64,000 nucleotides of DNA from an uncultured Armatimonadota bacterium (GTDB lineage: Bacteria; Armatimonadota; Fimbriimonadia; Fimbriimonadales; Fimbriimonadaceae). This document shows, one piece after another, positions 3 to 19,664 of the stretch. Each line of letters opens with the position of its first letter. Position 1 is the stretch's first letter. Location of the stretch: assembly GCA_903833215.1 (NCBI GenBank), contig CAILEM010000147.1, positions 1 through 64,000 on the forward strand, given 5' to 3'. The notes beneath the pieces were generated by a model. The model did no database searches. It had not been told where the DNA came from and saw only the letters and a list, made by a program, of their open reading frames with translations. The position numbers and the translations under genes are program-made.

Positions 3-564
3 AGTGTATCAGATCAGGCTTGGTGCGCATTCCCCAACCTGCTGGCTCCGGTTGAGTCTCAACGACTAAGTGTATCAGATCAGGCTTGGTGCGCATTCCC
101 CAACTCATGTATTCGGTACAGGCGGCTGGTAATAAGTGTATCAGATCAGGCTTGGTGCGCATTCCCCAACAGGTGCTTCCAACATCAAGCTACCGTCAAC
201 AGTGTATCAGATCAGGCTTGGTGCGCATTCCCCAACTAATATAAGCATCACGCTCGTCAGGAGAATAGTGTATCAGATCAGGCTTGGTGCGCATTCCCCA
301 ACTACGCTCGTCACGGGAATGTGCTCATGGTGAGTGTATCAGATCAGGCTTGGTGCGCATTCCCCAACGTCACCCTCTATCTGCTTCCAAGGCCCTGAGT
401 GTATCAGATCAGGCTTGGTGCGCATTCCCCAACCTGCTGTTGCCGATGCAGGACCGGTTACAAGTGTATCAGATCAGGCTTGGTGCGCATTCCCCAACTG
501 TCCTCTTGAATAATCAGCGACGAAAAAGAGTGTATCAGATCAGGCTTGGTGCGCATTCCCCAAC
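3..564. CRISPR. CRISPR array, 9 repeats and 8 spacers, type II-like geometry
   Basis: Nine identical 36-bp repeats begin at 3, 69, 135, 201, 267, 333, 398, 463 and 529. Each starts AGTGTATCAG and ends CATTCCCCAAC. The eight spacers are all different and 29 or 30 bp long, giving a 65-66-bp period. A 36-bp repeat with 30-bp spacers is the usual geometry of type II (Cas9) arrays; on the minus strand the repeat begins GTTGGGG, and a GTT-like start is common in type II repeats. This subtype call is inference, because no cas gene or tracrRNA is visible here. The left end is cut by the window edge, so more repeats and the cas locus may lie upstream. Apparent reading frames across the array encode only the repeated translation of the repeat and are not genes. 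Confidence 0.96.
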
Positions 565-602
565 GCCTACCGATGATTTGCAATCATCGGTAGGCGTTGG
601 GG
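558..602. repeat. Perfect 21-bp inverted repeat closing the CRISPR array
   Basis: Bases 558-578 are the exact reverse complement of 582-602, with a 3-nt loop (TGC). The left arm begins with the last 7 bases of the ninth CRISPR repeat (CCCCAAC), and the right arm ends with their complement (GTTGGGG). The hairpin therefore joins the repeat end to an inverted copy of it through a 31-bp palindrome. It also lies just downstream of the stop of the leftward MocA-type gene, so it could act as a terminator or transcription barrier between that gene and the array. Neither side carries a T-tract, so classic intrinsic termination is not clearly supported. Confidence 0.85.
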
Positions 603-618
603 TTGGGACAAAAGGCAA

Positions 619-1578
619 CTACAGCGTGACGACTTTGCCCGTCTTAGCACTCTCCAGCGCGGCAAGAGCGATCTTCAAGGCAACCAGGCCGTCTTCGCCA
701 GTAATTGGAACAGGGGAGCCGGTTTGAACACTTGCGAGGAATGCTGATAGTTCTAGGAAATACGGATCATCGAACGGTGCGAGAGACGGTTCGTAGGATG
801 ACGATTCGGTCGTTACCGTTTTGAGCGCGGGGGTTTTCTTGCTATCGAATTCGAGCAGCCCTTCACTTCCCGCGATATCGAAATAGGTTCGAAATCCACC
901 TGGATCCATCCATGTTGCCTCAACGTGAGCAACTGCTCCGGACTCAAAAGTGAGGGTTGTGAGAGCATAGTCTGGTCCGTGACCGGTGGTGGCTCCGACC
1001 GATCGACTGTAGAGGAACTTCACGTCACCAAACGTCCATTGAAGCCAATCGAAGTCATGAATCGCAAGGTCAAGAAGGACTCCACCGCTTCGAGAGTGGT
1101 CCATGAACCACCCTGAGCTGCCCGTCGGTGCCGGTCCCCCACGACGCGTTCGGATCGCAGCAGGTTTGCCGACCGATCCACTTTGCACCATCTGCCTGGC
1201 AAGGGCGAACTCGGGGAAATATCGAACGACGTGACCGATCATGAGAGGCACGTTGGCAGCCTTCGCGGCATCCACAATCGCCTGTGCTGCATCAACCGTT
1301 CTTGCGATGGGCTTCTCTAAGAAAAGGGGTTTTCCAGCCTCAATCACCCTATGCGCAAACTCTGGGTGGGCGTCGGTAGGAAGGCAGACATCGATGACGT
1401 CCGCCCAATCCAGCAGTTCCTCGATGGAATTGCAGAGATGGGCACCCCAGTTTTGGCGAAAAGTCTCACCACGCCCCAAGTTCCTCTCGTAATAACCGAG
1501 TTCAACCTCGGACATTTTGTGATACTGCCGGGCATGTGCATTGCCCATTCCGCCGGTGCCAACGACTCCTACCTTCAT
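619..1578 (-). CDS. Gfo/Idh/MocA family NAD(P)-dependent oxidoreductase
   Basis: This 319-residue protein has an N-terminal Rossmann nucleotide-binding fold with GVVGTGGMG at residues 4-12. The EKP motif of the family (LEKPIA, near residue 88) contributes the conserved active-site lysine. A C-terminal alpha/beta substrate domain contains the DLAIHDFDW segment, which matches the conserved H-D motif region. Members oxidise or reduce sugars, inositols or related cyclic compounds with NAD(P); the substrate here cannot be told from sequence. Its ATG overlaps the stop of rseP as ATGA, so it is the last gene of the dxr-rseP transcription unit, although its function does not obviously relate to isoprenoids or intramembrane proteolysis. 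The hairpin at 558-602 lies just beyond its stop. Confidence 0.9.
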   Translation of the reverse strand: MKVGVVGTGGMGNAHARQYHKMSEVELGYYERNLGRGETFRQNWGAHLCNSIEELLDWADVIDVCLPTDAHPEFAHRVIEAGKPLFLEKPIARTVDAAQAIVDAAKAANVPLMIGHVVRYFPEFALARQMVQSGSVGKPAAIRTRRGGPAPTGSSGWFMDHSRSGGVLLDLAIHDFDWLQWTFGDVKFLYSRSVGATTGHGPDYALTTLTFESGAVAHVEATWMDPGGFRTYFDIAGSEGLLEFDSKKTPALKTVTTESSSYEPSLAPFDDPYFLELSAFLASVQTGSPVPITGEDGLVALKIALAALESAKTGKVVTL

Positions 1579-19620: not shown

Positions 19621-19664
19621 AAAGCGGAGGATTTGAGTATCAAACTCAAATCCTCCGCTTTTTT
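19621..19664 (+). terminator. Rho-independent terminator of greA
   Basis: Bases 19621-19638 pair perfectly with 19644-19661 (an 18-bp stem, AAAGCGGAGG at its base) around a 5-nt loop, followed by a run of T at 19659-19664. It lies 49 nt after the greA stop. The opposite strand has a weaker T-run, so it may also stop transcription from the convergent padR gene. Confidence 0.93.

What the first reader, a model, noticed from the sequence alone, without database searches (positions are those of the whole stretch)
558..602. Perfect 21-bp hairpin built from the CRISPR repeat end and its inverted copy
The final spacer-sized segment (565-595) is a palindrome, and it is flanked by CCCCAAC on one side and GTTGGGG on the other, so the repeat end is mirrored. 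The structure might be a terminator or a barrier between the array and the MocA-type gene, or a scar of an odd spacer-integration or inversion event.
Basis: seen in the sequence. Interest (0 to 1): 0.5.

Follow-up and report, generated by a model that had tools for sequence, protein, structure and literature searches.

The report
Hairpin silencing a CRISPR array's first repeat
A perfect 21-base-pair hairpin sits exactly at the oldest end of a Cas9 (type II-C) CRISPR array and ties up the start of its first repeat, probably to stop the cell making a useless guide RNA from the neighbouring gene; devices of this kind are already published, but this form, which also clamps the repeat itself, looks like a strong variant.

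Summary
In detail: window 558-602 is a perfect inverted repeat (21-bp arms, 3-nt loop) whose outer 7 bp are the CRISPR repeat end and its mirror. The array belongs to a type II-C system; cas9, cas1, cas2 and a tracrRNA-like anti-repeat lie on the contig holding the array's other end. In crRNA sense the hairpin lies just UPSTREAM of the first (oldest, 'extra') repeat, and the MocA-type gene reads into it. It has no U-tract, and its sequence is not shared by relatives. Yet 7 of 15 testable array ends in the same order carry a hairpin at this spot, with unrelated sequences, and all six stems scoring 19 or more in 520 kb of 53 loci lie there. This fits a published type II-C role: an upstream hairpin that prevents an 'extraneous crRNA' (PMC12080349). 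The variant is that the stem enters the repeat and is predicted to block tracrRNA pairing. Against it: hairpins abut the other array end about as often, which this role does not explain. Function is inferred; no RNA data were available.

The parts
558..602 (-). perfect 21-bp hairpin (arms 582-602 and 558-578 in crRNA sense, loop 579-581) abutting and entering the first repeat
529..564 (-). first (extra, inferred oldest) CRISPR repeat, GTTGGGGAATGCGCACCAAGCCTGATCTGATACACT in crRNA sense; nt 1-7 (558-564) lie in the stem
565..588 (-). the 24 nt that would be the guide of an extraneous crRNA; lies within the hairpin
   Evidence: definition of ecrRNA guide from PMC12080349
3..564 (-). nine repeats of the type II-C array; the array continues on contig C146 (L008 37-335)
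619..1578 (-). GFO/IDH/MocA-family oxidoreductase gene, same direction as the crRNAs; its stop codon lies 16 nt before the hairpin

Best explanation
The hairpin is an RNA-level insulator of the 5' end of a type II-C CRISPR array. RNA reading out of the MocA-type gene would otherwise join the stretch just upstream to the first repeat; paired with tracrRNA this would become an 'extraneous' crRNA with a meaningless guide. Here the would-be guide and repeat nt 1-7 are locked in a 21-bp stem, so the anti-repeat cannot pair with the start of that repeat. The spacers are unaffected if, as published for type II-C, transcription starts inside the repeats. Shown: position, structure, lack of a U-tract, predicted competition with the anti-repeat, recurrence at the same place with unrelated sequences. 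Inferred: that read-through occurs, that an extraneous crRNA would otherwise form, and that avoiding it was selected.
For: Type II-C gene set and tracrRNA-like anti-repeat. Cofold: repeat 1 nt 1-5 intramolecular at 0.97 or more and nearly unpaired with the anti-repeat, while 6 of the 8 other repeats in the window pair nt 4-7 with it at about 0.6 or more. Stem scoring 10 or more abutting the first repeat in 7 of 15 array ends of the order, 0 of 196 internal repeats, 1.35% of 33,643 intergenic positions. All six stems scoring 19 or more in 520,476 bases of 53 loci are at this array end. The mirror follows the repeat: G027 has repeat GTTTTGGG and mirror CAAAAC. The mechanism was tested by others for C. 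jejuni in a cell-free assay (PMC12080349). In the positives the neighbouring gene reads toward the array (crude ORF calls for four; by eye for L082, L072, L114, where one search's automatic call was wrong or distant).
Against: Hairpins abut the opposite, cas2-side end nearly as often: 6 of 17 in the order, 6 of 15 of a chosen subset of the others; that end has no extraneous crRNA. 8 of 15 ends of the order lack the feature. 19-23 bp without mismatch is more than blocking needs. Arrays with a hairpin do not significantly more often keep an intact first repeat (5 of 7 against 2 of 8, Fisher p 0.13). Internal repeats 2 and 3 (0-based) of the window also pair poorly with the anti-repeat in the cofold.
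Confidence: 0.58

Rival explanations
1. It is the transcription terminator or 3' stabiliser of the MocA-type gene, and the array merely lies behind it.
For: The hairpin starts 16 nt after the stop codon of a gene reading toward it. Some relatives have other hairpins after this gene (L012, L013).
Against: No U-tract on either strand. Stems this long are otherwise nearly absent from 520 kb, while gene 3' ends are many. Its outer 7 bp are made of the CRISPR repeat, and in G027 the mirror follows a different repeat. No relative keeps the sequence.
Confidence: 0.18
2. It is a general cap of array ends, acting on DNA (cruciform, protein site, adaptation boundary) or protecting RNA ends, not specifically against extraneous crRNA.
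For: Hairpins abut both ends of arrays at similar rates. Perfect arms fit a DNA-level role.
Against: The longest stems of the order (19 or more) are only at the cas-distal end; acquisition in type II-C is reported at the other end (passages).
Confidence: 0.12
3. A functionless scar: template switching in replication folded the end of the array back on itself and left perfect arms.
For: Arms are perfect and unrelated in sequence even within genera. The mirror enters the repeat by variable lengths: 7 nt here, 6 in G027, at least 29 at a contig end in G082. Template switching is reported to create and maintain RNA hairpins (PMC8794818; only the search listing and abstract start were seen).
Against: 7 of 15 at one exact position needs selection or a hot spot special to array ends. 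May be the origin without being the whole story.
Confidence: 0.12

Closest known systems
Hairpin sequestering the extraneous-crRNA guide upstream of type II-C arrays (Feussner et al. 2025, Microlife, PMC12080349)
   Same: Type II-C, upstream of the first (oldest) repeat, helix over the 24-25 nt would-be guide, no terminator needed.
   Different: Here the stem continues 7 nt into the repeat; that paper says earlier work found no upstream-repeat hairpin in II-C. The stem is 21 bp without mismatch, and such stems are frequent in one order.
Leader-repeat hairpin of type II-A (Liao et al. 2022, seen only through citing papers) and type VI (EMBO J. 2026, PMC13187072, abstract and passages)
   Same: Upstream RNA pairs with the first repeat and keeps the processing partner off.
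   Different: In II-A the first repeat is next to the newest spacer; here it is inferred to be the oldest. Only 7 nt of the repeat are covered.
Rho-independent terminator upstream of type II-C arrays (Feussner et al. 2025)
   Same: Stable hairpin between the neighbouring gene and the array.
   Different: No U-tract; the G-rich repeat start follows at once.

Membership tests
ecrRNA-blocking upstream hairpin of type II-C arrays | System is type II-C: cas9, cas1, cas2, no csn2 or cas4 beside them | tested here: met
   Cas9 TIGR01865, Cas1 TIGR03639, Cas2 TIGR01573; no further ORF of 100 aa or more on the cas strand between cas9 and the array
ecrRNA-blocking upstream hairpin of type II-C arrays | Lies upstream, in crRNA sense, of the extra repeat | tested here: met
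   Orientation from anti-repeat pairing, cas order and the published II-C arrangement; no transcript data
ecrRNA-blocking upstream hairpin of type II-C arrays | Helix of 8 bp or more involving the 25-nt guide | tested here: met
   21 bp; guide paired upstream more than in 99% of shuffles
ecrRNA-blocking upstream hairpin of type II-C arrays | Reduces ecrRNA production or targeting | not testable with these tools
   needs RNA or targeting assays
Leader-repeat hairpin (as in II-A, VI) | Upstream RNA base-pairs with the first repeat and competes with its partner | tested here: met
   in silico only, repeat nt 1-7
Leader-repeat hairpin (as in II-A, VI) | First repeat is at the acquisition end (true of II-A) | tested here: inconclusive
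   II-C reported to acquire at the 3' end; opposite flank conserved in G001/G019; not shown for this array
Rho-independent terminator | Run of T after the stem | tested here: not met
Ordinary CRISPR spacer (565-595) | Direct repeats on both sides | tested here: not met
   only an inverted 7-nt piece follows

The most novel reading that the evidence does not exclude
The long perfect stems (19-23 bp in five arrays of the order) are made to be cut: about two helical turns of dsRNA directly before the first repeat would be an RNase III substrate (recalled property), so the enzyme that matures crRNAs would also behead any read-through precursor. Such hairpins would be re-created again and again by template switching at the array end, which would explain why position and length are kept while sequence is not.
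Probability: 0.17. Interest if true: 0.62.

Novelty: new variant of a known kind. Interest (0 to 1): 0.44.

Why it matters
Every array with guide-first crRNAs has one repeat too many. How type II-C silences it has been proposed only recently, with modest enrichment across mixed bacteria. An order in which nearly half of the testable arrays carry a long hairpin at exactly that place, a few clamping the repeat itself, gives a clean system to test whether extraneous crRNAs cost immunity and how such perfect hairpins keep being remade.

Tried and rejected
Genome-wide repeat (REP-like) element: rejected; the inner 31 nt occurs once in the genome. Mobile or phage origin: no match in viral contigs (exact pattern) or phage records (blastn). 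Known RNA family: only sub-threshold miRNA models. tracrRNA: the anti-repeat lies upstream of cas9. Conserved MocA terminator: 28 relatives examined, none has it. A genome-contig scan with a single Cas9 sequence gave only 5 loci. A hairpin/mutation trade-off was tested and is not significant.

My first background used only the first 12 kb of the window and so missed the 18-bp stem at 19,621; its '0 of 321,929 positions at score 15 or more' and the binomial values printed there should not be used alone (neighbouring positions are not independent; stems of 15-18 do occur elsewhere).

Rows dropped before the 7-of-15 count: array ends at a contig end in G040, G082, G078, G163; no array on the contig in G020, G016, G064. 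Outside the order: contig ends L096, L097, L106; no array L102, L104, L108, L109. In one search, 25 of 40 loci had a usable flank (10 contig ends, 5 without array); one of the 25 (L159) is the same array as L107, so the outside total of 31 counts it once. In L078 a lone repeat lies about 700 nt further upstream, so its end is uncertain; in L083, L099, L101, L110, L113, L149, L152 the first repeat is a weak match.

Full report
What is there. Window 558-602 is a perfect inverted repeat: arms 558-578 and 582-602, 21 nt, no mismatch, 3-nt loop. 558-564 is the end of the last repeat copy (529-564) and 596-602 its inverted copy. In 500 dinucleotide shuffles of 501-640 no stem exceeds 10; in the 64-kb window only one other stem scores 12 or more (19,621-19,661, 18 bp, followed by a short T-run). 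The RNA fold is -50.5 kcal/mol, z -5.2.

The system. The contig begins inside the array. Five more repeats stand at the start of contig C146 (L008), followed by cas2, cas1 and a 1,009-aa cas9, confirmed by Pfam and NCBIfam. Upstream of cas9 lies a sequence that pairs with the repeat at -46.1 kcal/mol, taken here as the tracrRNA. With the published type II-C arrangement (promoters in the repeats, spacers added at the 3' end; passages, results), the crRNA sense of this array is the minus strand. The sigma-70 scan itself found no promoter in 1-2000; the likeness of the repeat end TGATACACT to an extended -10 is from recall. The order is probably Fimbriimonadales; that name is my inference and comes from no call.

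Not an ordinary terminator. No T-run follows the hairpin on either strand (tails). Downstream of 28 related MocA-family genes none shows this hairpin, although L012 and L013 show different ones; for L015 no stop codon was found in the stretch, and for several others the stop lay far off, so these are weak checks. The 31-nt core occurs once in the genome, and none of the other 290 genomes of the phylum comes closer than 3 mismatches to the 21-nt arm.

Recurrence. A Cas9 search of 101 genomes and a Cas1 search of 291 gave type II loci of the same order; 15 cas-distal array ends have usable flank. Seven have a stem scoring 10 or more whose 3' arm ends within 9 nt of the first repeat: the window 21, G069 10, G046 10, G038 23, G027 22, G001 19, G037 19. 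Eight do not: G042, G061, G068, G019, G171, G070, G173, G067. G173 has a hairpin that appears to need G-U pairs. Controls: 0 of 196 internal repeats, and 1.35% of 33,643 intergenic positions. In 520,476 bases of 53 loci of the order, six stems score 19 or more, and all six stand at this end of a type II-C array; one of them, G082, is an inverted copy of at least 29 nt of the repeat at a contig end and could be an assembly effect. Between species of one genus (three pairs) this flank is unrelated, whereas the opposite flank is clearly conserved in one pair (G001/G019), weakly in a second (G061/G171), not significantly in the third.

Outside the order. Seven other ends (five in the same phylum, two on named contigs) had none. 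Of 40 type II loci fetched from the phyla of L107 and L108 (records titled Terriglobia and Planctomycetota), 25 had a usable end and 3 score 10 or more: L126 12, L143 19, L144 17. Counting one array once, that is 3 of 31 against 7 of 15, Fisher p 0.008; the species are not independent.

The repeat itself is clamped. In the window, nt 1-7 of the repeat are in the stem. In G027, whose repeat starts GTTTTGGG rather than GTTGGGG, the mirror is CAAAAC, so the mirror follows the repeat. A cofold of 60 nt upstream plus the repeat with the anti-repeat gives intramolecular pairing of nt 1-5 of the first repeat at 0.97 or more and almost none with the anti-repeat. In 6 of the other 8 repeats nt 4-7 pair with the anti-repeat at about 0.6 or more; in numbers 2 and 3 (0-based) only at about 0.3 and 0.53. 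In one search, repeat nt 1-7 are paired upstream to a degree reached by 2.5% of shuffles or fewer in 3 of 15 ends of the order: the window, G038, G027. The would-be guide is paired to a degree reached by 1.5% or fewer in 8 of 15 (the window, G069, G046, G038, G001, G171, G173, G037) and in 0 of 7 outside.

What is known. Feussner et al. [quoted passage not shown] First-repeat mutations are seen here too, in 8 of the 15 arrays, seven of these within nt 1-3. They state that earlier work found no upstream-repeat hairpin in II-C. The EMBO J. 2026 paper (abstract and passages) describes leader-repeat hairpins in type VI and cites them for II-A. A search for papers holding both ecrRNA and type II-C returned only these two (related searches), in an open-licence library only.

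Against. Hairpins abut the cas2-side end as well: 6 of 17 arrays of the order and 6 of 15 of a chosen subset of the others. That end cannot give an extraneous crRNA in a guide-first system, so part of the pattern may be a general feature of array ends. No experiment was available.

Verdict. A real, strongly non-random element; most likely an insulator that keeps the first repeat from producing an extraneous crRNA; a variant of a recently published kind.

Noticed in passing
cas2-side ends of arrays: L070, L073, L074, L077, L078, L079; also L122, L126, L129, L143, L144, L147: Hairpins (score 10-19) start within 9 nt of the last repeat at the cas2-side end, mostly without a T-run: 6 of 17 arrays of the order and 6 of 15 others. 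Role unknown.
   Followed up: partly
L081 1-71 (G082:C52): The contig starts inside an inverted copy of at least 29 nt of the CRISPR repeat, 13 nt before the first repeat; either a full fold-back of the repeat or an assembly effect.
   Followed up: no
first repeats of L070, L080, L082, L083, L098, L111, L113: Changes in the oldest repeat fall within its first 3 nt in 7 of the 8 mutated first repeats of the order.
   Followed up: partly
window 19621-19661: Perfect 18-bp hairpin with 5-nt loop followed by a short T-run, probably an ordinary terminator.
   Followed up: no
L122 11809-11856 (reverse complement of the locus): A 22-bp hairpin ends 35 nt upstream of the first repeat of a type II array, near it but not abutting.
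   Followed up: no
L111, about 20-55 nt before the first repeat: Hairpin preceded by a run of A, i.e. a terminator-like element pointing away from the array on the other strand.
   Followed up: no
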